DNA from: a virus
IMG/VR virus record: IMGVR_UViG_3300025413_000887
Coordinates: 1-26,900 of that record
Length of the DNA stretch: 26,900 nucleotides
Strand: one strand, 5' to 3'
Part shown: positions 1 through 26,900 of the stretch, in pieces
Layout: every line of letters starts with the position of its first letter
Numbering within the stretch: position 1 is the stretch's first letter
The notes under the pieces: generated by a model
Databases searched by the model: none
What the model was told of the DNA's origin: nothing
Seen by the model: the letters and a program-made list of their open reading frames with translations, nothing else
Made by a program: the position numbers and the translations under genes

Positions 1-513
1 TTTGAAGATTGTTTGGATAAAACAAAATACAATAACAAATATTTCCTAGACAACCGCTTAGGTCAGACCAAGTTCCTAAACGTGCTACAAGGTGGCGACT
101 GGGATCGTGCTGAACAATGGTATAATGGTGTTAAAGAATTTAGCGATCCTAAGATATGGGGCGACAAAGCCGCTGAAGGCTGGGCCATGGGCGGTGCTAA
201 TATGAGCATGATGGATGTTACTCTTAAACGTCTAATGACAATGAGAGACGACGGCATGCTAGTGGGTAAAGACTGGATGCACTTTTTGGGTACAGCACAA
301 TTAGATTGGGCCTGCTACTTAACTTTGATTCAACGACAAATTAGGAAACATATCAATGAAAACTTCACCATCTCTTTTGATTGCGCCTCACCGTTTATCG
401 CAACAGCACACGGACTTGTCTACACAAACCCACAGTTCTCGCCAAAACGGTGGAGTACTATTATGGAAAAAGCCACAGACAACAAACAGGACTCCTTTCC
501 CCTGGGAAAGTGA
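1..513 (+). CDS. dpdA: DpdA-like DNA guanine transglycosylase, N-terminal part (5' truncated, frameshifted)
   Basis: The reading frame is open from base 1, so the true start lies upstream. The TTG at 13 is only an internal codon. The protein matches the tRNA-guanine transglycosylase fold. It has a VLQGG strand, then GWAMGG (compare GYAVGG in bacterial Tgt), a MRDDG turn, HFLGTAQLDWA, and a SFDCASPF segment around base 379 that aligns with the FDCVMPTR nucleophile motif of Tgt. The Asp codon at 379-381 is therefore the likely catalytic nucleophile. Phage DpdA proteins replace guanine in DNA with a 7-deazaguanine base. The frame ends at TGA 511-513, but homologous-looking sequence continues in the +1 frame from about base 490-503. 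The co-oriented QueE and QueD-family genes support a DNA-modification role over tRNA modification. The family call is firm; the DpdA subfamily is not resolved. Confidence 0.8.
   Translation, partial: FEDCLDKTKYNNKYFLDNRLGQTKFLNVLQGGDWDRAEQWYNGVKEFSDPKIWGDKAAEGWAMGGANMSMMDVTLKRLMTMRDDGMLVGKDWMHFLGTAQLDWACYLTLIQRQIRKHINENFTISFDCASPFIATAHGLVYTNPQFSPKRWSTIMEKATDNKQDSFPLGK
489..502 (+). other. +1 frameshift zone within dpdA
   Basis: The zero frame reads through QDSFPLGK to TGA 511-513. The +1 frame carries the expected PFPWESEIG continuation. The zone contains a GG pair (489-490), TTT (496-498) and CCCC (499-502). CCC-C lets tRNA-Pro re-pair one base forward, which is a known type of +1 slip. However, no stop codon sits directly after the slip codon, so a recoding signal is not obvious. 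Confidence 0.55.
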
Positions 514-1024
514 AATTGGAAGCCGCTTGACAATGGGTGATATCTGCTGGTATCAGCCAGGCATGTTAAACAAGATTGGCAAAGAAGGCAAAACATCATG
601 GGATAGTTTTAGCTATGCTCTTATGATGGCACATAATGTTAACAGTCACATTTCCAGTGTACAACGTGCTAATCATTTAGTAGATATCGAATGTACAAGA
701 TATCAGCCAAATTGGAAGTTATGGGGAATTGAAGGTAAGAAAGAAAAAGAATACAGTGACTGGGTTCCACGTAGGATTTTATACTTTAGCCGTTTTATCA
801 AAGAGCTGTTTGAAACAACATCAAAACAAGAAGCATTTGATATGATTGAAGAAGGTATTGGATTTTTACGTAGCCTAGAAGGCACACGTAGCCAAGATGG
901 TATGGCACGTAATACATTCTTTAATTTATTTGAAGAAGAAGCTAAAGATGAAAATGATTTAGACTTGTCTAATCCCGACGATGACGAATTACGTGCTTTA
1001 GAAGAAAGTGTTGACAGTGAATAA
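500..1024 (+). CDS. dpdA: DpdA-like transglycosylase, C-terminal part in the +1 frame
   Basis: This frame continues the preceding protein without a credible start of its own. It reads PFPWESEIGSRLTMGDICW and continues to an acidic C-terminus rich in Asp and Glu, ending at TAA 1022-1024. The open frame extends back to about 356, but residues before the PFPWES block do not look protein-like. A shift anywhere between about 489 and 502 joins the two parts, for example at the CCCC run 499-502 (slip from CCC 499-501 to CCC 500-502) or one extra G at 489-490. An internal ATG at 535 could in principle give a short separate product, but that would lack the nucleophile. It overlaps the next gene by a few bases, as expected for an intact operon. 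Whether this is programmed frameshifting, a real lesion or an assembly error cannot be told from one sequence. Confidence 0.7.
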   Translation, partial: PWESEIGSRLTMGDICWYQPGMLNKIGKEGKTSWDSFSYALMMAHNVNSHISSVQRANHLVDIECTRYQPNWKLWGIEGKKEKEYSDWVPRRILYFSRFIKELFETTSKQEAFDMIEEGIGFLRSLEGTRSQDGMARNTFFNLFEEEAKDENDLDLSNPDDDELRALEESVDSE

Positions 1025-1493
1025 ATTTACAGATTTTCCAGAACAACCTAGAGTAATGCGTGACGCAGAGGGCGAAGCATATTTTAGTATTATGCTGGCC
1101 CAAATTGCAGATTTCAATCCTAACGAAATCATTGCTGTGGCACGTAGCGGATTTAGTTATGCTATGTGGGTAGCGCAAATGCTTAAATTACCATTAGGTG
1201 CTTATTGGGCAGAGCGAGGTGAACTGGTCACCGGCAGTGATCCAGAACGTATTGTATTTGTAGATGACAATATTGTATCTGGTAGTACATATAAAGATAC
1301 AAAACTTTTTATGGAACGGTATTATCCCAATACTGAATGGCGTTGGGCTGTATTATTTACTGACTGGCATACTCCGAAAGAAATATGCGATGAAGTCATT
1401 CAAGGTGTAAAACTTCCTTACTTTGCTGAAGAGCCAATGTGGGGTAGCAAAAAAATTAGTCAAGATTATGGCATAAGGTACAGAGATGAATAA
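1017..1493 (+). CDS. Phosphoribosyltransferase-family protein
   Basis: This is a type I phosphoribosyltransferase-like protein of about 158 residues. It has an IIAVARSGF strand near residue 38-46 and a PRPP-binding loop RIVFVDDNIVSGST at about 78-91, the diagnostic acidic-acidic loop of the fold. Such enzymes join or release a base and PRPP; the substrate cannot be read here. GTG 1017 is chosen because a GAAGAAAG ribosome site lies about 8 bases upstream. GTG 1008 and TTG 1011 are in frame and also possible. It overlaps the dpdA stop by 8 bases and the next gene by 8, so it belongs to the same operon. It may act in base or nucleotide handling for the modification pathway or in salvage; some phosphoribosyltransferase-fold proteins are regulatory. 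Confidence 0.75.
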   Translation: MNKFTDFPEQPRVMRDAEGEAYFSIMLAQIADFNPNEIIAVARSGFSYAMWVAQMLKLPLGAYWAERGELVTGSDPERIVFVDDNIVSGSTYKDTKLFMERYYPNTEWRWAVLFTDWHTPKEICDEVIQGVKLPYFAEEPMWGSKKISQDYGIRYRDE

Positions 1494-1902
1494 TATTAGA
1501 ATCGCATTTGATATGGACGGGGTATTACTACCCGATTTTCATAAAATTCCTCAGTTAAATGATGATGAATTTTTCGAGCATACATTATATGCTAGGCCCA
1601 TGTTTTCGCCAGTTGGTGTTTTTGATGTGGTCACTGCCCGTACAGAAGATCGTCGGCCAGTTACACTAGAATGGCTCAAACAGTTATCCACTCCGCCACA
1701 AAATTTGTTTATGAAGCCTGTGAATAGTGATGAAACTCCAGCTGAATACAAATATCGTAAGTGTATTGAAGAAGGTTATAAAATTTTTGTAGAAAGCGAA
1801 CCCAGTATTGTTTTAGAAATGCGTGAAATGGCATTGATTGATAACACAGACTTAATGGTTATTCATTTTTCTGGTTTCGTTTCAAGAGGATTTGAATTGT
1901 GA
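1486..1902 (+). CDS. HAD-superfamily hydrolase (small, capless)
   Basis: The N-terminus RIAFDMDGVLL carries HAD motif I, with the nucleophile and acid/base Asp pair in DMDGV. VVTAR supplies motif II (Thr), a Lys in FMKP could be motif III, and FVESEPS may stand in for the acidic motif IV. At 138 residues there is no room for a large cap domain, so it resembles small 5'-nucleotidase or phosphatase types that accept large or nucleotide substrates. ATG 1486 overlaps the upstream stop by 8 bases. Removal of a phosphate from a nucleotide or sugar-phosphate intermediate fits the operon, but the substrate is not shown by the sequence. Confidence 0.72.
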   Translation: MNNIRIAFDMDGVLLPDFHKIPQLNDDEFFEHTLYARPMFSPVGVFDVVTARTEDRRPVTLEWLKQLSTPPQNLFMKPVNSDETPAEYKYRKCIEEGYKIFVESEPSIVLEMREMALIDNTDLMVIHFSGFVSRGFEL

Positions 1903-2780
1903 AAAGTCTAATCGTAGGTATGGGGATTGGCAATCTCTACAAAGCAGTATTAACTAATTTAGGACACGAAGTTGTTACTGTGGATATCAATCCATCAGCA
2001 AATGCTGACTATCCCACAATTGGAGACGCTTGCCTTAAGCACAAACATTTTGATACCGCACACATTTGTACTCCAAATTATCTACATAATATTCATGCTA
2101 GGTCTGCGGCCAATTGTGCTAAAATTATATTTGTGGAAAAACCAGGTGTTGCTAATGCCAAAGATTGGTTGGAGTTAGTCAGCTATTTTCCTAAAACAAG
2201 ATTCATGATGGTTAAAAATAACCAATGGCGAGATAATATTGAACGTATGCGTGAATTGATGATTGACTCAGATTCAATATCAATTGATTGGTTAAATCAA
2301 GATCGTGTGCCCAATCCTGGAACATGGTTTACCACAAAACACTTGGCATATGGCGGAGTTAGTAGAGATTTAATGCCTCACTTGTTGAGCTTGTTTATGG
2401 CTTTAGACCCAGAATACATGACATCACGTGAATTAGAAAGATCGATTGACCGTAAATGGAAATTGTGTGATCTCACAAAGACAGATTATGGCAGAGTTAA
2501 CGAACATGGCACATATGATGTCGATGACTACTTTAAATTAAATTTCATGTGTAATGATCGAGCTTGGAGTTTGACCGCAGACTGGCGTACTCTAAAAGAA
2601 GATCGTAGAGCTATTACATTTAATTTAAAAGATGGCGGTGCTGAAGTTATTGAATTAGGATTATGTCCAGAAGAAGCATACCAAGTCATGATCAAAGATG
2701 CTATTGATAATTTAGAAAATAATTTATTTTGGAATAACCAATTACTACAGGATTACTGGATTCACAGTAAGATAGAATGA
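1899..2780 (+). CDS. Gfo/Idh/MocA-family oxidoreductase
   Basis: The N-terminal Rossmann fold has a glycine-rich VGMGIGNLY turn at residues 6-14. It is followed by HICTPNYLH (55-63) and the family signature FVEKPG (79-83), whose Lys is the usual catalytic residue. A GGVSRDLMPH segment in the second half matches the conserved Asp/His site of the substrate domain. Family members oxidise or reduce sugars and related alcohols with NAD(P). The length, 293 residues, is slightly short for the family. The start is GTG 1899 with AGAGGA 8 bases upstream, overlapping the HAD stop; the end overlaps the next ATG by 4 bases. Sitting next to a second dehydrogenase and near a glycosyltransferase, it may prepare or modify a sugar or side chain. 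The substrate is unknown. Confidence 0.8.
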   Translation: MKSLIVGMGIGNLYKAVLTNLGHEVVTVDINPSANADYPTIGDACLKHKHFDTAHICTPNYLHNIHARSAANCAKIIFVEKPGVANAKDWLELVSYFPKTRFMMVKNNQWRDNIERMRELMIDSDSISIDWLNQDRVPNPGTWFTTKHLAYGGVSRDLMPHLLSLFMALDPEYMTSRELERSIDRKWKLCDLTKTDYGRVNEHGTYDVDDYFKLNFMCNDRAWSLTADWRTLKEDRRAITFNLKDGGAEVIELGLCPEEAYQVMIKDAIDNLENNLFWNNQLLQDYWIHSKIE

Positions 2781-3670
2781 ACGTAAGACTACTACATACT
2801 ACCGGAAACGGAATATTTGAAGAAACCATTTGGGAAAAGCCTGAACCTTCTGATAACGAAATTGAAGTACGTGCTGTTATGACAGGTGTTTGCCGAAGCG
2901 ACATCGACATGATGATGGGCAATTTTGGGCCACTACCATTACACATGCAGGGGCATGAAGGATTGGGCATAGTAACCAAAGTTGGTAGTGATATCACTGA
3001 TATTGCCATTGGAAATTTTGTTGCTACACGCGGTGAACCCGCTTATGCAGATTTTTATAATGTACGCAACACTGAATACACATGGGTTCCTGAACTACAC
3101 CCTCGCTATATTATTGAGCCAGTAGCCTGCGGTATCAATATTATAGATCAAGCATGGCAACAAATTAGAGAAAGATCTAATGGAAAAATACTAATCATAG
3201 GCAGTGGATTCCTTGCCTGGGTGGCGTTTAATAGATTAAAATCACAACGATCAAATGCCAGTGTTGATGTATTAGGATCAAGTAATTTAGAATTATGGGG
3301 AGATCAACTGCTGTTAGGAACCAGTGAAAGTTATGATGTGGTCATTGACCTAACTGGAAAATATGCGTTAGGCTTAGACATTAAACTAAACAACAACGCA
3401 ATAATTATAGACGGCGTTGGCAAAGCAATTAGTAGAGAGGAAGCACAGCAACAACTTTGGAAAGCCTGTACTACAATTCGTCCAAGTCCTCGAAATCCAA
3501 AATTTCATCAATGTATGAAAGAAGCAGTTTGGATGATTGAAAATTATCATTTAGCTATTGACAATTTCTGGACTAAAGCGTATAATAGAGATACAGAATG
3601 GCAACAAGCGTTTGCGGATGGTAAGGATCGTCCAAACGGTTATAGCCGAGGTTACATTGTATGGGATTGA
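2777..3670 (+). CDS. Zinc-type medium-chain dehydrogenase/reductase (alcohol dehydrogenase-like)
   Basis: The GroES-like catalytic domain is clear. GVCRSD gives the zinc Cys (residue 39), and GHEGLGIV gives the His-Glu pair (60-61) with the typical G-rich turn. EPVACGI around 114 is the inter-domain motif. A Rossmann segment KILIIGSGFLAW follows. At 297 residues it is shorter than the usual 340 or more, and the four-Cys structural zinc lobe of many alcohol dehydrogenases is absent. The last Gly of the nucleotide motif is Ala. The ATGA overlap with the upstream oxidoreductase implies coupled translation, so the pair probably act on the same or successive intermediates. Family call secure; reaction unknown. 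Confidence 0.8.
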   Translation: MNVRLLHTTGNGIFEETIWEKPEPSDNEIEVRAVMTGVCRSDIDMMMGNFGPLPLHMQGHEGLGIVTKVGSDITDIAIGNFVATRGEPAYADFYNVRNTEYTWVPELHPRYIIEPVACGINIIDQAWQQIRERSNGKILIIGSGFLAWVAFNRLKSQRSNASVDVLGSSNLELWGDQLLLGTSESYDVVIDLTGKYALGLDIKLNNNAIIIDGVGKAISREEAQQQLWKACTTIRPSPRNPKFHQCMKEAVWMIENYHLAIDNFWTKAYNRDTEWQQAFADGKDRPNGYSRGYIVWD

Positions 3671-4200
3671 ATACTGAAGAACGACAAGGAGTCGTTTACT
3701 TTACAGGTTATGAAGTAGAACATACTATTTGTCATGGTATGTATACATTGTTTGTTGTAGGCACACCTCCTGTAGAAGATATCCTACGTATTGCCAACGA
3801 CTCACAAGCAATGTTAGACGAGTCTAAACGTATCAAACATATCTACTTTGGTACTAGCCAAAGTTTTAATCCTCAAGGTATTACATTTCAAGAATACCGG
3901 GCATGGGACGATGTCATTCTTCCATGTTTAAAAGCAGACTACTGGGTGACATTAGACTTTGATGTCAAACACGCCGAAGGAGTGCTCGAATCTGGATATT
4001 CTGAATATCCTAGATTTGTTCCGATGATTAGTGTTAAGCTACCTTACATTAATCAATTTAACTATAACGCCACACTTAAACTGGACGACCTCACATGGGG
4101 TAAGACTAATCCGGGTGTGTGGACTCATCAACTACATGATCTAATGAGTAAAGACAAATATACTTACTGGGATCAATATACACAGGACACAGAACTATGA
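3661..4200 (+). CDS. Conserved-looking phage protein of unknown function, next to QueD-like gene
   Basis: This soluble-looking protein of 179 residues has no recognised catalytic motif. Visible features are FTGYEVEHTICHGMYTLF near the start, KHIYFGTSQSFN in the middle, a VTLDFDVKH strand, and PMISVKLPYI followed by NPGVWTHQLHDLM near the end. The several His, Asp and Cys residues in such blocks look like conserved functional segments, but I cannot assign a fold. ATG 3661 overlaps the dehydrogenase by 10 bases, and the end overlaps the QueD-like ATG by 4. Its tight coupling to the QueD-family gene suggests a role in the same pathway. It could equally be a structural partner. Confidence 0.6.
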   Translation: MGLNTEERQGVVYFTGYEVEHTICHGMYTLFVVGTPPVEDILRIANDSQAMLDESKRIKHIYFGTSQSFNPQGITFQEYRAWDDVILPCLKADYWVTLDFDVKHAEGVLESGYSEYPRFVPMISVKLPYINQFNYNATLKLDDLTWGKTNPGVWTHQLHDLMSKDKYTYWDQYTQDTEL

Positions 4201-4562
4201 CAACAAATACATATATCAAAATTCGCACAGAATTTGAAGGTTTTCATTTTTACCCCGACGCAGGTAAAATTGATCCACGCATTGAATTTTTAGAACACGA
4301 ACATCGCCATATGTTCAAGGTCGAAGTTAAAATCTCTGTCACGCATTTGGATCGTGAACTAGAGTTCTTCCTTGTCAAATGGGCACTACAAGATTTTATC
4401 CGAGCAGGCGACCAAAATCATAAGTCCTGCGAAATGATAGCAACAGATATTTTGCAGGACCATTTAATTCCTCTTTACGGACCAAATCGATCTTATGAGA
4501 TCGTAGTATCCGAAGATGGGGAATCAGATGGTATTGTGGAATATACTCCGTCTTTTCATTAA
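4197..4562 (+). CDS. QueD/6-pyruvoyl-tetrahydropterin synthase superfamily protein lacking canonical catalytic residues
   Basis: The T-fold pattern of QueD/PTPS proteins is visible. There is an N-terminal strand with His17 in GFHFYP, then HEHRHMFKVEV with His36 and His38 as the other two likely zinc ligands. NHKSCEMIATDIL replaces the usual segment ending in NPTSE, and VVSEDGESDG holds the late Glu (about 106). The catalytic Cys four residues before the HxH pair in E. coli QueD is a Leu here, and the Asp-His of the central loop is missing. It is therefore unlikely to be a normal carboxy-tetrahydropterin synthase. A 7-deazaguanine tailoring role, such as the DpdL-type CDG decarboxylase described for phages, is a possibility I cannot confirm. 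Length 121 is typical of the superfamily. Confidence 0.72.
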   Translation: MTTNTYIKIRTEFEGFHFYPDAGKIDPRIEFLEHEHRHMFKVEVKISVTHLDRELEFFLVKWALQDFIRAGDQNHKSCEMIATDILQDHLIPLYGPNRSYEIVVSEDGESDGIVEYTPSFH

Positions 4563-4588
4563 CTCCTATTTTAACAGGAAAATTTAAA

Positions 4589-4852
4589 ATGGCATTGCCA
4601 AACTATATTACAAAAACTCTTCAACTGAAGCCCGAAGTCAACAAGATCTTTAATGATCTAGATCGTTGGTTGGATCACTGTAGGATTAACCTACTGCCCT
4701 ATAACCCTGCGGACTTGTATCGTAGTCCAGAGTATAGGAAGTTCCAACAGGAGCAAGAGTACTTAGAACGTAAAGCACGTCGTGAACGTGAAGGACGTCC
4801 AGAGCCAGTTAAACAACGCGAATTCCGCGGCAACTTCAAGCCACGGTATTGA
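4589..4852 (+). CDS. Small basic protein, function unknown
   Basis: This is an 87-residue protein with a good ribosome site (ACAGGAAAA) upstream of ATG 4589. The C-terminal half is highly charged and probably helical, with runs such as QEQEYLERKARREREGR, and ends in an Arg/Lys-rich tail that could bind nucleic acid. No family is recognised. It ends one base before the ATG of the glycosyltransferase, so it is part of the operon. Confidence 0.6.
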   Translation: MALPNYITKTLQLKPEVNKIFNDLDRWLDHCRINLLPYNPADLYRSPEYRKFQQEQEYLERKARREREGRPEPVKQREFRGNFKPRY

Positions 4853-4853
4853 T

Positions 4854-5921
4854 ATGGCAAATATCTTTCTAATCGATTTAGAAAGTGTAGAAACTAGGTA
4901 CACGGGGCAATGGAAGTCCCATGTACCTAATATCTTACGAAAGGCAGGACACGATGTTAGAGTTATTTCCGGACCTGGAGATATTCCTCCAGCAACTACG
5001 CCAGGAGCTTTTCTTAACTTTGGTGGCACCAATATATACAAGGCTAATCAAGTTGAACAGATTAGTCGTTTGTTTTGCTCCGGAGCAGTCAAGCCTGGCG
5101 ATCATTTTTTGTTCACAGATGCTTGGCATCCCGGAATCATAAATTTAAAATACATGAGTGAACTACTGGGAATCCCAGTAACTACACACGGCTTATGGCA
5201 TGCTGGCAGTTATGATCCTCAAGATTTTCTTGGACGTCTTGTAGGAGATAAGCCATGGGTAAGACATGCTGAGAAAAGTTTTTATGAAGCATTTGATCAT
5301 AACTACTTTGCCACACAGTTCCATATTGATATGTTCTGTGAAAATTTGTTAGATCGTAAATCTGATATCACCATCTATTTTGCCAAAGATAAAATTGTTC
5401 GCACAGGTTGGCCCATGGAGTATATGGATGAATTATTGGGCGGAGGAGGCCCGTATGCCAAAGACAACCTAATTGTATTCCCGCACCGTATTGCTCCAGA
5501 GAAGCAGGTAGAAATTTTTAGAGATTTGGCTAATCATTTACCAGAATATGAATTTGTTGTTTGCCAGGATCAATCACTGACTAAGAATGAATACCATACC
5601 TTGTTGAAACGTGCTAAGATTGTGTTCAGTGCTAACCTACAGGAAACACTAGGTATCAGTTGCTACGAAGGTGCTATGGTAGATACTATTCCCATGGTGC
5701 CTGATAGATTAAGCTACACAGAAATGTATTATGATACTTTCAAATATCCAAGCAAATGGACTGAAAGTTTTGAAGCATATCAATCATATCGTCCGCAACT
5801 TTGCTATAAATTGGTCAATTACTTAAAAAATTACGAAAAGTTTTTACCACAACTACACAAACAAACTCAAGACTTAACAGAAAGATTTTTCTCATGTCAA
5901 AACTTGCTGACAAAATTTTAA
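4854..5921 (+). CDS. GT-B fold glycosyltransferase (GT4-like)
   Basis: Start ATG 4854, just after the preceding TGA, gives MANIFLIDLESVE, a natural N-terminal strand. The longer frame back to 4782 reads through the basic gene and is rejected. The protein of about 355 residues has the two-domain GT-B layout. An N-terminal domain precedes RTGWPMEY, then a second nucleotide-sugar-binding domain begins at DNLIVFPHRIAPEKQVEIF and includes KRAKIVFSAN and ETLGISCYEGAM. The last is the E-x7-E donor-binding motif of retaining GT4-type enzymes. It would transfer a sugar from a nucleotide donor. The acceptor could be modified DNA bases or a surface glycan; the operon context makes DNA plausible but does not prove it. 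Confidence 0.75.
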   Translation: MANIFLIDLESVETRYTGQWKSHVPNILRKAGHDVRVISGPGDIPPATTPGAFLNFGGTNIYKANQVEQISRLFCSGAVKPGDHFLFTDAWHPGIINLKYMSELLGIPVTTHGLWHAGSYDPQDFLGRLVGDKPWVRHAEKSFYEAFDHNYFATQFHIDMFCENLLDRKSDITIYFAKDKIVRTGWPMEYMDELLGGGGPYAKDNLIVFPHRIAPEKQVEIFRDLANHLPEYEFVVCQDQSLTKNEYHTLLKRAKIVFSANLQETLGISCYEGAMVDTIPMVPDRLSYTEMYYDTFKYPSKWTESFEAYQSYRPQLCYKLVNYLKNYEKFLPQLHKQTQDLTERFFSCQNLLTKF

Positions 5922-6373
5922 ATTTGCTCGACCAAATGGGTCGTAAACGTGTTGTACTAGATCGAGAAGGAAATGAACCTTATCTTATACGCTATTATGT
6001 CTTTCTCAAAGACCGAAAGTTATTTCCATTTAATGTGTTTTTACACAAGTTTCTTAAGTCAGACCCCGATGATGTGCATGATCATCCTTGGCCTTACGCT
6101 ACACTAATTTTACGAGGTGGATATTACGAATGGATTCCAAAATTTAATGACAAAAAAGAAATGATTGGTGAAATTCGTAAATGGAGAGGCCCTGGTCATT
6201 TTCGTATATCTCGACCATCAAGCTATCATCGTATTGAATTACAAGAAGGAGTTACTCCTTGGACTCTGTTTATGCCTGGACCACAACAGCGTGAATGGGG
6301 ATTTTTAGTTAATAATCAGTGGATACATAATGAACAATATTTGAAGGAAAGAAATGAACAAGCTCATACTTAA
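5894..6373 (+). CDS. Cupin-like metal-binding protein
   Basis: This 159-residue protein has a DDVHDHPW motif near residues 56-63, then ILRGGYYEWIP and GHFRISRPSSYHRIEL. That is the two-motif pattern of a cupin beta-barrel, with His residues able to bind a metal. WTLFMPGPQQREWGF closes the barrel. It overlaps the glycosyltransferase by 28 bases and the next gene by 20. Proteins of this type are known in phages and bacteria mostly without an assigned reaction. It could be an oxygenase, an isomerase or a binding protein. Confidence 0.68.
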   Translation: MSKLADKILNLLDQMGRKRVVLDREGNEPYLIRYYVFLKDRKLFPFNVFLHKFLKSDPDDVHDHPWPYATLILRGGYYEWIPKFNDKKEMIGEIRKWRGPGHFRISRPSSYHRIELQEGVTPWTLFMPGPQQREWGFLVNNQWIHNEQYLKERNEQAHT

Positions 6374-6854
6374 TGATCAGGAGTACAAAGGCCTTGTTGG
6401 CAAAATATGTCGGGATATCGCCGTTAGCGGTTGGCGCCCGGATTATATTGTAGGCATCGGTCGTGGTGGGTTGTTGCCTGCTGTCATGATCAGTCAATAT
6501 TTTGGTATCAAAATGTGTAGTTTAGATATCAGTCTGCGTGATGGTGGCGATACTGTTAGTAATTTTAGTATGAGTGAAGATGCGTTTAGCGGCAAAAAAA
6601 TTCTAATCGTCGACGACATCAACGATACAGGAGCTACAATTAACTGGCTAATGAATGACTGGCGTAGCTCATGCCAACCCGAGCATCAGGTATGGGACGA
6701 AGGTGTGTGGAATGACAATGTTAAATTTGCTGTGGTTGTGGATAACTGGAGTAGCGCATGTCAAGTCACTATGGATTTCACAGGGATGGAAGTAAACAAA
6801 TCAGAACAAGACGTATGGATTGAATTTCCTTACGAGGAATGGTGGACCAAATGA
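6354..6854 (+). CDS. Phosphoribosyltransferase (xanthine/hypoxanthine-type)
   Basis: This second type I phosphoribosyltransferase of the operon is closer to bacterial Gpt-like enzymes. YIVGIGRGGLLPAVMIS (31-47) provides the pyrophosphate-binding loop, and KKILIVDDINDTGATI (81-96) is the PRPP loop. The region between holds a flexible-loop-like segment with SLRDGG. It may salvage a purine or a deazapurine. ATG 6354 has a GAAGGAAAGAA ribosome site. It overlaps the HIT gene by 4 bases. Two phosphoribosyltransferases in one operon are unusual and suggest that ribosylated intermediates matter. Confidence 0.8.
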   Translation: MNKLILNDQEYKGLVGKICRDIAVSGWRPDYIVGIGRGGLLPAVMISQYFGIKMCSLDISLRDGGDTVSNFSMSEDAFSGKKILIVDDINDTGATINWLMNDWRSSCQPEHQVWDEGVWNDNVKFAVVVDNWSSACQVTMDFTGMEVNKSEQDVWIEFPYEEWWTK

Positions 6855-7697: not shown

Positions 7698-7917
7698 TTC
7701 AATTAAAAATACATATAAAGAAATGGTCATTAAAGAAGATTCAGGATTTCGACTGGTGTTGAAGAAACATGAAGTGTTGAGTCCTAAAGGTCTTTTTAGT
7801 GTTAATTTAGAACAACAAAATTTACGAGATGGTGAAATCTCAGATGTTTCAACATATAACTTCTTTATGACCAAAGAAGAAATTCAAGCACTAGCACATG
7901 GATTAACACATGAGTAA
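7687..7917 (+). CDS. Small hypothetical protein
   Basis: This 76-residue protein has a strong ribosome site (AAAAGGAGAAG) before ATG 7687. It is soluble and charged. The end, FFMTKEEIQALAHGLTHE, looks like a helix and overlaps the queE start by 8 bases. No family recognised. Its position directly ahead of queE suggests co-translation only. Confidence 0.6.
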   Translation: MLHDSIKNTYKEMVIKEDSGFRLVLKKHEVLSPKGLFSVNLEQQNLRDGEISDVSTYNFFMTKEEIQALAHGLTHE

Positions 7918-8761
7918 GATTAAAATAGCAGAACTATTTTATAGTATACAGGGAGAAGGACGTTATATGGGCGTACCAAGTATCTTCTTAAGGACTTTCG
8001 GCTGCAATTTCCGCTGTGCAGGATTTGGTATGCCTAAAGGGCAATTGAGCGCAGAAGCAGAAGACATTGCCACCGTAGTGCATTTATATAACAAATATGA
8101 AGATTTGCCGCTAGTATCAACTGGTTGTGATAGTTATGCTAGTTGGCATCCTGATTTTAAAAACCTAAGTCCTATGTTGACTACGGATGCTATTGTTGAA
8201 CGCATCATGGAGATATTGCCCTTCAATGAGTGGCGCAATGAACATCTTGTTATCACAGGTGGTGAACCGCTATTAGGTTGGCAACGTGCTTATCCTGACC
8301 TGTTGGATCATCCTAAAATGTCTAAACTAAAAGAAATTACATTTGAAACAAATGGTACTCAAAAGTTAACACAAGATTTTAAAAATTATCTTGGAGTATG
8401 GAATGGCTTACCTAGGCAAAAACGAGAAATTACATTCAGTGTAAGTGCTAAGTTGCCAGCAAGTGGTGAAAAGTGGGAAGAAGCTATTCTTCCAGAAGTT
8501 GTTTGTGAATATGAAGAAGTAGGCACAGCATATCTTAAATTTGTGGTAGCCACAGAAGAGGACGTTAAAGATGCAGAACAAGCAATTGAACAATATAGAG
8601 CGGCTGGCTTTAAAGGTCACATATATCTTATGCCTGTTGGCGGTGTTGAGTCTGTTTACAATCTCAATGCTAAATCCGTTGCCCTTGCCGCAATGAAACG
8701 CGGCCTACGTTATAGTGATCGACTACAAGTGCCCTTGTTCAAGAACGAGTGGGGCACTTGA
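7910..8761 (+). CDS. queE: QueE, 7-carboxy-7-deazaguanine synthase (radical SAM), phage type
   Basis: QueE converts 6-carboxy-tetrahydropterin to 7-carboxy-7-deazaguanine (CDG). The N-terminus AELFYSIQGEGRYMGVPSIFLR is the family signature. Two iron-sulphur Cys are at 32 and 36 (GCNFRC). The third Cys of a normal CX3CX2C motif is Phe39; the likely third ligand is Cys73 in TGCDSYASW, after a roughly 36-residue insertion. VITGGEPLLGWQ gives the SAM-binding GGEP motif, and ITFETNGTQ is the next conserved strand. At 283 residues it is longer than typical QueE, consistent with the insertion. It overlaps the upstream gene by 8 bases. No QueC, QueF or FolE is in this window, so later steps must come from elsewhere or be absent. 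Confidence 0.88.
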   Translation: MSKIKIAELFYSIQGEGRYMGVPSIFLRTFGCNFRCAGFGMPKGQLSAEAEDIATVVHLYNKYEDLPLVSTGCDSYASWHPDFKNLSPMLTTDAIVERIMEILPFNEWRNEHLVITGGEPLLGWQRAYPDLLDHPKMSKLKEITFETNGTQKLTQDFKNYLGVWNGLPRQKREITFSVSAKLPASGEKWEEAILPEVVCEYEEVGTAYLKFVVATEEDVKDAEQAIEQYRAAGFKGHIYLMPVGGVESVYNLNAKSVALAAMKRGLRYSDRLQVPLFKNEWGT

Positions 8762-22855: not shown

Positions 22856-24133
22856 TTAGTGTTTAAATCGTGTATTGGATCTCGGAAATGTCTGCCCTTG
22901 ATTAGGTCGAATACTAGACTGTCTTGGAAATGTCATACCTTGGTTTGATCGAAGACTTTGAATAAGACTCAGTAAAGAATACCCGTTTGGCGCTCCCATA
23001 CCTGTAACAGGATCCCAACCAACTCGTGATGCGTATCCTTGGGCTATGGCTGTGGCATTGGTACCTGTAGTGATATCGTAAAATGCAGTTGGATTGGCAT
23101 AAAACAGTTGATTGTATGCTACTGATCCCAATGCTTTACCAGTTAATGCCTTGATTCTAGCTATCATGCCTGCCATAACAGGAGTGGATGCGCTAGTACC
23201 ACCAACACCGCTTAGAGTTCCGCTAGTATAAAACGCATAGGCGTTGGCCATTGGACCAGAAATGTCTGGAATACCCCTCGCAGTCACAGATGTTAATGCT
23301 CCGGTAACGTGAGTCGAACTATTATATGTTTGATATTGTAGCCCACTTTGCCAGCTAGGAGCTGAAAATATTGAACTAAATCCGCCGCCACTACCAAAAG
23401 TACTACCAAAAGTAGAGTCGTCTTGTTCGGTTGTTTCTGTTAAACGAGTATTGGTTCCTGTGTTTATGGTAAGATGAGTCCCACCAACAGCAATCATATA
23501 GGGACTAGACGGCGGATAGTTGACTGCCAATACATTTCCCGAATCAGAACCAAGGTCTCCCGAACTGTTTACAAAAGCAATATTATTGGAATTAGCTGAT
23601 TGTAGCTGTGATGATAAAAAATCTCCACCAGATTCACTGAATGTCCAACTCATTGATATTACATCACACCCATCAGAAACAGCTCTAGCAATAGTACTTC
23701 GAACATTAGCCACTGTAGTAGAACTGGTGTTTATGTAAATGGTAATATTGGCCTGAGGGACTAATGTGGCAATACATGTGATATCTAATATATTTTCTCC
23801 GTCAGCATTGCTGTCACTAGTGCCAGTTGCGCCATTTAACAATACCTGCGTTATAGTTGGTGCTGATACTGATGCTGGAAGAATACCCCTTGTTTTATAA
23901 TCTGAAAATGTTGAATTAAGATCGCTTTGAAGGAAAGTTCCACCAAAACTAATAATTCCAACCTTAATACCTGCTCCAGAATGATACGGCATATTATATG
24001 CTGTAGCAATTTGAGGGGGTGTAAGATATACATAATTACCACTATAATAGTAGCCAGTATTTGTGTGTACTGATTCATCAATTGGCGTTACAGTTAAATC
24101 CGCAAGCTGGGCGACTATTTGTTCATCAGACAT
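22856..24133 (-). CDS. S53 sedolisin/kumamolisin-type serine peptidase in the tail block
   Basis: The 425-residue protein matches the sedolisin catalytic domain over almost its whole length. LTPPQIATAYNMPY (37-50) opens it. DGENILDITC places the catalytic Glu113 and Asp117 four apart, SSGDLGS holds Asp193 as the likely oxyanion Asp, GSGGGFSSIFSAPSWQ is the conserved turn, and GGTSASTP carries Ser314. Glu-to-Ser spacing of 201 agrees with kumamolisin (200). Asp353 (FYDITTG) and Asp374 (GWDPVTG) fit the calcium site. The propeptide domain of secreted sedolisins is absent; about 30 residues precede the fold. A short repeat NQGMTFPR / NQGQTFPR ends the protein. A virion-bound enzyme that trims host surface protein or processes fibres is plausible. 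Confidence 0.85.
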   Translation of the reverse strand: MSDEQIVAQLADLTVTPIDESVHTNTGYYYSGNYVYLTPPQIATAYNMPYHSGAGIKVGIISFGGTFLQSDLNSTFSDYKTRGILPASVSAPTITQVLLNGATGTSDSNADGENILDITCIATLVPQANITIYINTSSTTVANVRSTIARAVSDGCDVISMSWTFSESGGDFLSSQLQSANSNNIAFVNSSGDLGSDSGNVLAVNYPPSSPYMIAVGGTHLTINTGTNTRLTETTEQDDSTFGSTFGSGGGFSSIFSAPSWQSGLQYQTYNSSTHVTGALTSVTARGIPDISGPMANAYAFYTSGTLSGVGGTSASTPVMAGMIARIKALTGKALGSVAYNQLFYANPTAFYDITTGTNATAIAQGYASRVGWDPVTGMGAPNGYSLLSLIQSLRSNQGMTFPRQSSIRPNQGQTFPRSNTRFKH

Positions 24134-26900
24134 TATTGTTCTAATCCTAATAGTGTTAATGTTACATTAACTGCTGACGAACTTCCAGAGTTATTTGTAA
24201 CTGCCAGATAGACTGTACTATTTGTTATAGTATCATTATTAAATCCAACAACTCCTGGGGTAATTAATTGTGTTAACGATCCAGAAGTTGTAATAACATC
24301 TGCTATCACTCCAGATCCTGCTGTAGGATCAGTACTTTGATTTCTAGAACTGTCATTGGATAAACTAGTTGCGTCAGTATAGATTCTAACCCATGCTGGC
24401 TGATCAGTTACAACTTTTGACAACACATAAGATTTGTATCCTAATACGATAGTTGTAGCAGTAGTTCCTGCCGCTAAAACGCTGGTTGCTGTTGTAACTG
24501 TTACTCTAGTACCTGCTCCTGCTGATCCAGAATAACCTACTGGTCCAACACTACCAGCATAGCCTATTGGACCACTGACTGTGCTTGCTGATCCAGTATA
24601 ACCTGTTGCTCCAGCGCTGCCAGCGTAGCCTAAGCCACTTGATCCAGTATAACCTGTAGTCCCAATGCTTCCAGTGTATCCACCTGGGTCACCTTTGCTA
24701 CCTGTAAATCCAATAGAAGCATAAGCACCCTGAGATCCAGAATAACCACGTGGTCCTTGTACCGTACTTGCTGATCCAGTATATCCACCAGCATCGCCTT
24801 TACTTCCAGCAAACCCCTGTGTACCAAAACTACCAGTAAATCCTGTTATACCTTGACTACCAGCATAACCAACTGATCCCCAATAGCCAACGCTGCCAGC
24901 GTAACCTTGACTACCAGAATACCCCAATCCGCCAATTGATCCTGAATAGCCCTGTGGTCCAATACTTCCAGCATAGCCAGTACTGCCAGCATAGCCATTT
25001 TTGCCAACTACCCCGCTTAATATAAATTGCCAACTTGTAAATGTTCCAGATCCGTAGACTGAATAAACTTGGGTAGTTACTGTTGTTCCAGTAATACTGG
25101 TAATGATACTTGAAATATAATTAGCAGGATTAACTACTCCGCCTGGAGAGGACAATAATACTATAGATTGACTTGTGGTATACGCTGATAATGCAATGTT
25201 GGTAGCAGTAAAGCTGAATGTGGTTCCAGGAGAAACAAGAGCAATATTAGTTGCCGTACTTGTTGCTGTGGTAACAAGGAATCCTAATCCTATACTGCCA
25301 GTATATCCCACTGATCCAGAATATCCTTGGCTACCAGTAAAACCAGTAACGCCAAAGCTGCCAGTAAAACCGGTAATGCCTTGGCTACCTGTGTAGCCAA
25401 CACTTCCCCAATAACCAGCACTTCCCCAATAGCCAACGCTACCAGTGTAACCTTGACTACCAGTATATCCACCTGGATTACCTTGAGCACCAACACTACC
25501 AGTATACCCGATTTGGCTTGCCGCACCAATTGACCCAGAGAATCCTCTACTACCCGTAAATCCATTAGGACCCTGTGGGCCACTTACGTTACTAGCAGAG
25601 CCAGTATAACCAACACTACCAGTATACCCTAAGCTACCGCTGTATCCCAATGGACCGCTTACGCTACTAGCGGATCCAGTATAACCTTGCGGACCTTGCG
25701 GACCAAAACTGCCTGTAAAGCCAGTTGATCCTGAATAGCCTGTTGGGCCAATTACATTACTAGCAGATCCAGTATAACCTTGTGGGCCCACACTGCCAGT
25801 AAAACCAACTGATCCAGTATAGCCCAACGGTCCACTCACACTACTAGCAGACCCAGTAAAACCCTGTGGACCAATGCTACCTGTATAGCCCAAGCTACCA
25901 GCATATCCTTGACTACCAGCATATCCCTGTGGTCCTTGCGGGCCTACAGAACCAGTATATCCGCCAGCATCACCTTTACTTCCACTAAACCCTTGGAAAC
26001 CCTGTGGTCCAGATACAGTACTTGCTGATCCAGTATAGCCAATACTTCCGCTGTAGCCTAAACTACCTGTATAGCCCTGTGGTCCTTGAGCCCCAACCGA
26101 ACCAGTATAACCTCCTGGTGGTCCTTGTGGGCCAGTTGGTCCAGGTACTTCACTGACACTACCTGTAAATCCAGTTTTACCAATATTACCAACACTACCT
26201 GTGTATCCTCTAGGACCTTGCGGACCGCTTACATTACTGGCTGAACCAGTATAGCCGCCTGGAGGTCCTTGCGGGCCTGGAACAGAACTTGCTGATCCAG
26301 TAAAACCAATAGATCCAACACTGCCTGTATACCCTAAATTTCCAATACTACCACTGTAGCCAATACGACCAACACTACCAGTATATCCGGAGGCACCTAT
26401 ACTGCCTGTATAACCACCCGGAGTTCCTGGAGCACCAGCACTGCCTGTATAGCCGCCTGGGTCACCTTTACTACCCGTGTAGCCAATTCCCACATTAGAA
26501 ATGTTGATTACACCGTTCATGCTAGGCAAATTATTAGTTTGATATGCTAGAGTATCAGGAGCGTTCATTGGCACACTAAATGTTACTGTACCAACCGTTG
26601 CTCCATTATTTGTTACTCCAGTAGTGTATGGGGCACTATTATTGTCAGTATAATGGTCAACTATGTAAAAACCATGACTTGGGCTATTAACAGTAAAATA
26701 ATAAGTGAATCCACGGGCTAGATTAATAATGTTGGTATTAAGGCCATTGATTAAAAAACTGCCCAATCCACTATCTGTTATAGAAATATAAAGTCCTGCT
26801 AATTGCCCGGCACTACCAGTGTATCCTTTACTGCCAGTAAATCCAAAACTACCGTTATATCCAATAACTCCTGCGCTACCAGCATATCCTGTACTGCCAG
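24133..26900 (-). CDS. Collagen-like Gly-X-Y tail fibre protein (5' truncated at the window edge)
   Basis: The frame is open to the right edge, so the start is outside the window; the TTG at 26766 is internal. Reading from the N-terminal side, bases 26900-26809 are Gly-X-Y repeats. Bases about 26800-26490 encode a beta domain (GFTYYFTVNSPSHGFYIVDH, GVTNNGATVGTVTFSVP, NLPSMNGVINI) resembling phage cupredoxin-like modules. Bases about 26490-25292 are a long collagen region built on GYTGSxG units. A beta spacer spans about 25291-25010, a second collagen region about 25010-24530. A C-terminal beta domain ending NNSGSSSAVNVTLTLLG follows. Trimeric collagen stalks are a known way to extend phage fibres. 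The C-terminus overlaps the sedolisin start. Confidence 0.82.
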   Translation of the reverse strand, partial: GSTGYAGSAGVIGYNGSFGFTGSKGYTGSAGQLAGLYISITDSGLGSFLINGLNTNIINLARGFTYYFTVNSPSHGFYIVDHYTDNNSAPYTTGVTNNGATVGTVTFSVPMNAPDTLAYQTNNLPSMNGVINISNVGIGYTGSKGDPGGYTGSAGAPGTPGGYTGSIGASGYTGSVGRIGYSGSIGNLGYTGSVGSIGFTGSASSVPGPQGPPGGYTGSASNVSGPQGPRGYTGSVGNIGKTGFTGSVSEVPGPTGPQGPPGGYTGSVGAQGPQGYTGSLGYSGSIGYTGSASTVSGPQGFQGFSGSKGDAGGYTGSVGPQGPQGYAGSQGYAGSLGYTGSIGPQGFTGSASSVSGPLGYTGSVGFTGSVGPQGYTGSASNVIGPTGYSGSTGFTGSFGPQGPQGYTGSASSVSGPLGYSGSLGYTGSVGYTGSASNVSGPQGPNGFTGSRGFSGSIGAASQIGYTGSVGAQGNPGGYTGSQGYTGSVGYWGSAGYWGSVGYTGSQGITGFTGSFGVTGFTGSQGYSGSVGYTGSIGLGFLVTTATSTATNIALVSPGTTFSFTATNIALSAYTTSQSIVLLSSPGGVVNPANYISSIITSITGTTVTTQVYSVYGSGTFTSWQFILSGVVGKNGYAGSTGYAGSIGPQGYSGSIGGLGYSGSQGYAGSVGYWGSVGYAGSQGITGFTGSFGTQGFAGSKGDAGGYTGSASTVQGPRGYSGSQGAYASIGFTGSKGDPGGYTGSIGTTGYTGSSGLGYAGSAGATGYTGSASTVSGPIGYAGSVGPVGYSGSAGAGTRVTVTTATSVLAAGTTATTIVLGYKSYVLSKVVTDQPAWVRIYTDATSLSNDSSRNQSTDPTAGSGVIADVITTSGSLTQLITPGVVGFNNDTITNSTVYLAVTNNSGSSSAVNVTLTLLGLEQ
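24530..26490 (-). repeat. Degenerate Gly-X-Y coding repeats (collagen stalk)
   Basis: Both sides of the 25010-25291 spacer consist of 9- to 18-base repeats encoding Gly-Tyr-Thr-Gly-Ser-Val and variants (GPQGPQGYTGS, GSASSVSGP). About every third residue is Gly. The units vary in third-base choice, so they are not recent copies. Such DNA is prone to slippage and length change. Confidence 0.85.

What the first reader, a model, noticed from the sequence alone, without database searches (positions are those of the whole stretch)
1..1024. DpdA transglycosylase split by a +1 frameshift
The two halves of a DpdA-like enzyme lie in adjacent frames with no gap. The zero frame carries the nucleophile-like FDC motif, the +1 frame carries the rest, and the switch lies between about 489 and 502, including a CCCC run. 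This is either programmed +1 frameshifting controlling a DNA-modifying enzyme, a real inactivation, or one inserted base in the assembly. The operon after it stays intact and coupled, and the +1 part has no stop for 170 codons, which argues against an old dead gene.
Basis: partly seen in the sequence, partly recalled or inferred. Interest (0 to 1): 0.7.

Follow-up and report, generated by a model that had tools for sequence, protein, structure and literature searches.

The report
Broken phage DpdA gene, likely misassembly
A phage gene for a DNA-base-swapping enzyme looks split in this one contig, but three otherwise identical contigs and all other relatives examined carry it whole, so the split is almost certainly an assembly error or a private mutation and not a regulated frameshift.

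Summary
The frame break is present in the letters, but it is not a one-base +1 event. Across all 26,900 bases the window is identical to a 156,630-bp IMG/VR contig except at one spot, window 486-489. In those three contigs the gene is one intact 512-codon ORF. Of 160 related loci, 158 cross the junction in a single open frame; the other two stop only because their contig ends. The window's junction was found in no other viral contig. The CCCC run is ordinary Pro coding and is not conserved (7 of 82 distinct contexts). Programmed frameshifting is not supported. The lesion lies 485 bases from the contig end and is the only difference in 26.9 kb, so I favour a local assembly error (about 0.75) over a rare real null allele (about 0.22). 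The enzyme call holds up: invariant GDSGG and FDC motifs, a predicted fold matching tRNA-guanine transglycosylases (Z about 17), and 7-deazaguanine genes nearby. It belongs to a DpdA-like group annotated 'hypothetical protein' in PA5oct-like Pseudomonas phages.

The parts
1..513 (+). Upstream part of the dpdA-like gene (residues 168-329 of the 512-aa protein, then 8 residues out of register and a TGA); 5' end cut by the contig start; carries the FDC motif
   Evidence: Open frame; 100% identical to the intact copies up to base 485
486..489 (+). The lesion: 4 bases (ACAG) where three otherwise identical contigs have 18; net -14, frame lost
   Evidence: Alignment and whole-window comparison; junction absent from other viral contigs
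490..1024 (+). Downstream part of the dpdA-like gene, in the next frame, to its normal stop
   Evidence: Identical to the intact copies from base 490 on
7910..8761 (+). QueE-like (7-carboxy-7-deazaguanine synthase) radical SAM gene, a probable partner in 7-deazaguanine synthesis
   Evidence: NCBIfam QueE models at E 8e-17 and weaker, all below their curated cut-offs

Best explanation
The phage carries an ordinary, single-frame gene for a DpdA-type (TGT-fold) transglycosylase, which by analogy exchanges guanine in phage DNA for a 7-deazaguanine such as preQ0 (inferred, not shown). In this contig alone, 18 bases around codon 328 were replaced by 4, which puts the downstream part in another frame. 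Most likely this is a local assembly error close to the contig end, at a short direct repeat. The shift itself has no function.
For: One difference in 26,900 bases from a 156-kb contig, and the same single difference from two more contigs. It lies 485 bases from the contig end. Intact 512-aa ORF in all three. 158 of 160 related loci (97 distinct proteins) span the junction in one open frame; the other two end at a contig edge. The window's junction occurs in no other viral contig, the intact sequence in three. The intact sequence holds a 7-bp direct repeat CAACAAG spaced 14 bp, the same length as the loss. Local assembly errors are known to put incorrect protein-coding sequences into databases (PMC7111523).
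Against: No reads are held, so the error is inferred. A clean repeat collapse does not explain the two remaining base differences at 486 and 489. How independent the three sister assemblies are of each other is unknown.
Confidence: 0.75

Rival explanations
1. A real, rare null allele: a deletion between the CAACAAG repeats, with two adjacent substitutions, in the sampled phage population truncates DpdA at about residue 337 and abolishes DNA modification in that lineage.
For: The loss equals the spacing of a direct repeat; no other damage in the gene, as a very recent mutation would show.
Against: Private to this contig, compound rather than a simple deletion, close to the contig end, and in a strongly conserved gene.
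Confidence: 0.22
2. Programmed +1 frameshifting at the CCCC run joins the two halves and controls the amount of active DpdA.
For: The upstream frame reads TTT CCC CTG GGA AAG TGA, so a +1 slip on CCC-C could reach the downstream frame before the stop.
Against: All spanning relatives, including three otherwise identical phages, encode the protein in one frame. CCCC occurs in only 7 of 82 distinct contexts, as in-frame Pro coding. A slipped product would still lack five residues relative to the intact copies.
Confidence: 0.02

Closest known systems
Phage DpdA / DpdA2, 7-deazaguanine DNA transglycosylases (Hutinet et al. 2019, PMC6884629)
   Same: TGT fold, conserved Asp motifs, and neighbouring genes for 7-deazaguanine synthesis in the window (QueE-like) and in cultured relatives.
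   Different: No sequence-level match to any Pfam, PHROG or NCBIfam model. Whether it falls in DpdA2 or in another subgroup was not tested; base-exchange activity is not shown.
tRNA-guanine transglycosylase (TGT / arcTGT)
   Same: Predicted fold: VIA-align Z about 17, rmsd 4.4-5.2, about 300 aligned residues, all 50 rows shown are TGTs; GDSGG and FDC motifs invariant.
   Different: About 14% identity and no TGT Pfam match; extra C-terminal part of low model confidence.
Hypothetical protein EST35_0316 of Pseudomonas phage PA5oct and its relatives
   Same: About 41% identity over 99% of the length in eleven records; in PA5oct it lies between a DNA polymerase and a 7-carboxy-7-deazaguanine synthase, followed by RNaseH.
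   Different: Intact single frame there; unannotated as to function.

Membership tests
DpdA-type DNA transglycosylase (phage) | TGT fold | tested here: met
   AF2 model of the intact homologue (pLDDT 73, pTM 0.79) matches TGTs: Foldseek E 7e-5, VIA Z 17.7, rmsd 5.2, 321 residues
DpdA-type DNA transglycosylase (phage) | Catalytic Asp motifs of the TGT superfamily (DSGG and the nucleophile FDC) | tested here: met
   D104-S-G-G and F-D294-C invariant in 33 relatives; their catalytic role is taken from knowledge of TGTs
DpdA-type DNA transglycosylase (phage) | Encoded with preQ0 / 7-deazaguanine synthesis genes | tested here: met
   QueE-like gene in the window; homologues beside 7-cyano-7-deazaguanine reductase, queuosine biosynthesis and GTP cyclohydrolase I genes and 7-carboxy-7-deazaguanine synthase. 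QueC and FolE Pfam models found nothing in the sister contig, which may be incomplete
DpdA-type DNA transglycosylase (phage) | Inserts 7-deazaguanine into DNA, not tRNA | not testable with these tools
   Needs biochemistry
Programmed +1 frameshifting | Shift conserved in homologues | tested here: not met
   No frame break in 158 spanning loci
Programmed +1 frameshifting | Conserved slip sequence | tested here: not met
   CCCC in 7 of 82 distinct contexts
Local assembly error | Sequence not supported by reads | not testable with these tools
   No reads held; single private difference near the contig end is circumstantial

The most novel reading that the evidence does not exclude
A subpopulation of this phage really carries a truncated dpdA, so that loss of a DNA-modification enzyme segregates within an otherwise clonal phage population.
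Probability: 0.2. Interest if true: 0.3.

Novelty: not a real feature. Interest (0 to 1): 0.1.

Why it matters
It removes a false lead for recoding in a DNA-modification enzyme. It also shows that a gene common in uncultivated phages and in PA5oct-like Pseudomonas phages, so far 'hypothetical protein', has the fold, motifs and gene neighbourhood of DpdA.

Tried and rejected
Pfam, PHROGs, NCBIfam and PDB sequence searches gave no family match for the protein, nor PDB for the profile of 33 relatives; its identity came from fold and gene context. QueC, FolE, PTPS and TGT Pfam models found nothing in the 156-kb sister contig; it may be a fragment, so this is no evidence of absence. I looked for a donor of the inserted ACAG in the sister contigs and found only a 10-base chance match. 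A divergent relative (L011) does read AACAAACAG at this point, so mixing of strain sequences during assembly is possible but unproven. The small ORF at 4197-4562 looked QueD-like to me, but no model matched it. A literature search on assembler gap closing gave nothing specific.

Full report
What the letters show. Frame 1 is open from the contig start to a TGA at 511-513. Frame 2 is open from 329 to the TAA at 1022-1024, and the homology passes from one to the other between 485 and 490. So the observation of a split gene is correct to within a few bases.

What the difference is. The window is a 26,900-bp viral contig record. I compared it with three near-identical IMG/VR contigs. Against 3300025379_000003 (156,630 bp) all 26,900 bases align with one difference; against 3300006103_000741 and 3300025430_000882 the overlapping 11.8 and 11.1 kb align with the same single difference. 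The difference is at window 486-489: ACAG in place of GGCACTCGCAACAAGCAA. That is 18 bases replaced by 4, net -14, which shifts the frame as an inserted base would.

Relatives. In the sister contig examined (L003) the gene is one 512-codon ORF, and the other two have the same sequence. Among 160 loci fetched by searching with each half separately (about 130 contigs; 97 distinct proteins), 158 span the junction in one frame with no internal stop. The other two simply end at a contig edge. The halves were searched independently, so the set is not selected for intact genes. The window's junction was not found in any other viral contig, while the intact sequence was found in three. CCCC occurs in 7 of 82 distinct contexts, as in-frame Pro coding. 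Programmed frameshifting therefore has no comparative support.

Error or allele. The only difference in 26.9 kb is a compound indel 485 bases from the contig end. The lost length equals the 14-bp spacing of a 7-bp direct repeat CAACAAG, but two base differences remain that a clean repeat deletion would not give. Local assembly errors are known to put incorrect protein-coding sequences into databases (PMC7111523). I weigh assembly error at 0.75, a real private null allele at 0.22 and recoding at 0.02; these are judgements, and reads would decide. If the lesion were real, the product would stop near residue 337, keep the FDC motif and lose the C-terminal third.

Identity of the enzyme. No sequence model recognises it. 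In an alignment of 33 relatives GDSGG (D104) and FDC (D294) are invariant. The AF2 model (pLDDT 73) matches tRNA-guanine transglycosylases: Foldseek E 7e-5, VIA Z 17.7 (rmsd 5.2, 321 residues), with all 50 rows shown being TGTs. A QueE-like gene lies at 7910-8761. The homologue in Vibrio phage 2.275.O is next to 7-cyano-7-deazaguanine reductase, queuosine biosynthesis and GTP cyclohydrolase I genes. The PA5oct homologue (41% identity) lies upstream of a 7-carboxy-7-deazaguanine synthase. Hutinet et al. 2019 (PMC6884629) describe DpdA and a divergent DpdA2 that 9g DpdA does not find by PSI-BLAST but that HHpred links to TGT; this group resembles that situation. Whether it is DpdA2 or a further subgroup was not tested.

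Verdict. The split is present in the record but is not a regulated feature. The gene is an ordinary, divergent DpdA-like transglycosylase gene of a phage lineage known mostly from metagenomes.

Noticed in passing
window 22856-24133 (-): A 425-aa subtilase-family serine protease (Peptidase_S8, E 5e-16) sits among tail-collar and collagen-like repeat proteins on the minus strand, an unusual companion for phage tail genes.
   Followed up: partly
window 24133-26898 (-): A long open frame of collagen-like GxxGYTGSxG repeats runs off the contig end; related repeats occur elsewhere in the sister contig, near 69-70 kb.
   Followed up: no
window 1008-6854 (+): Downstream of dpdA lies a run of short overlapping genes with two phosphoribosyltransferase-like proteins, a GFO/IDH/MocA oxidoreductase, an alcohol-dehydrogenase-like protein and a possible glycosyltransferase, perhaps nucleotide or sugar metabolism.
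   Followed up: partly
L063, L018, L057, L140, L087 (alignment A2 columns 368-400): Five relatives carry an in-frame insertion of about 25-35 residues just after the GDIxxY motif, close to the lesion site but without frame change.
   Followed up: no
PA5oct MK797984.1 222985-224607 and ten related records: The DpdA-like protein is annotated 'hypothetical protein' in eleven PA5oct-like Pseudomonas phage records, with QueE annotated nearby in PA5oct.
   Followed up: partly
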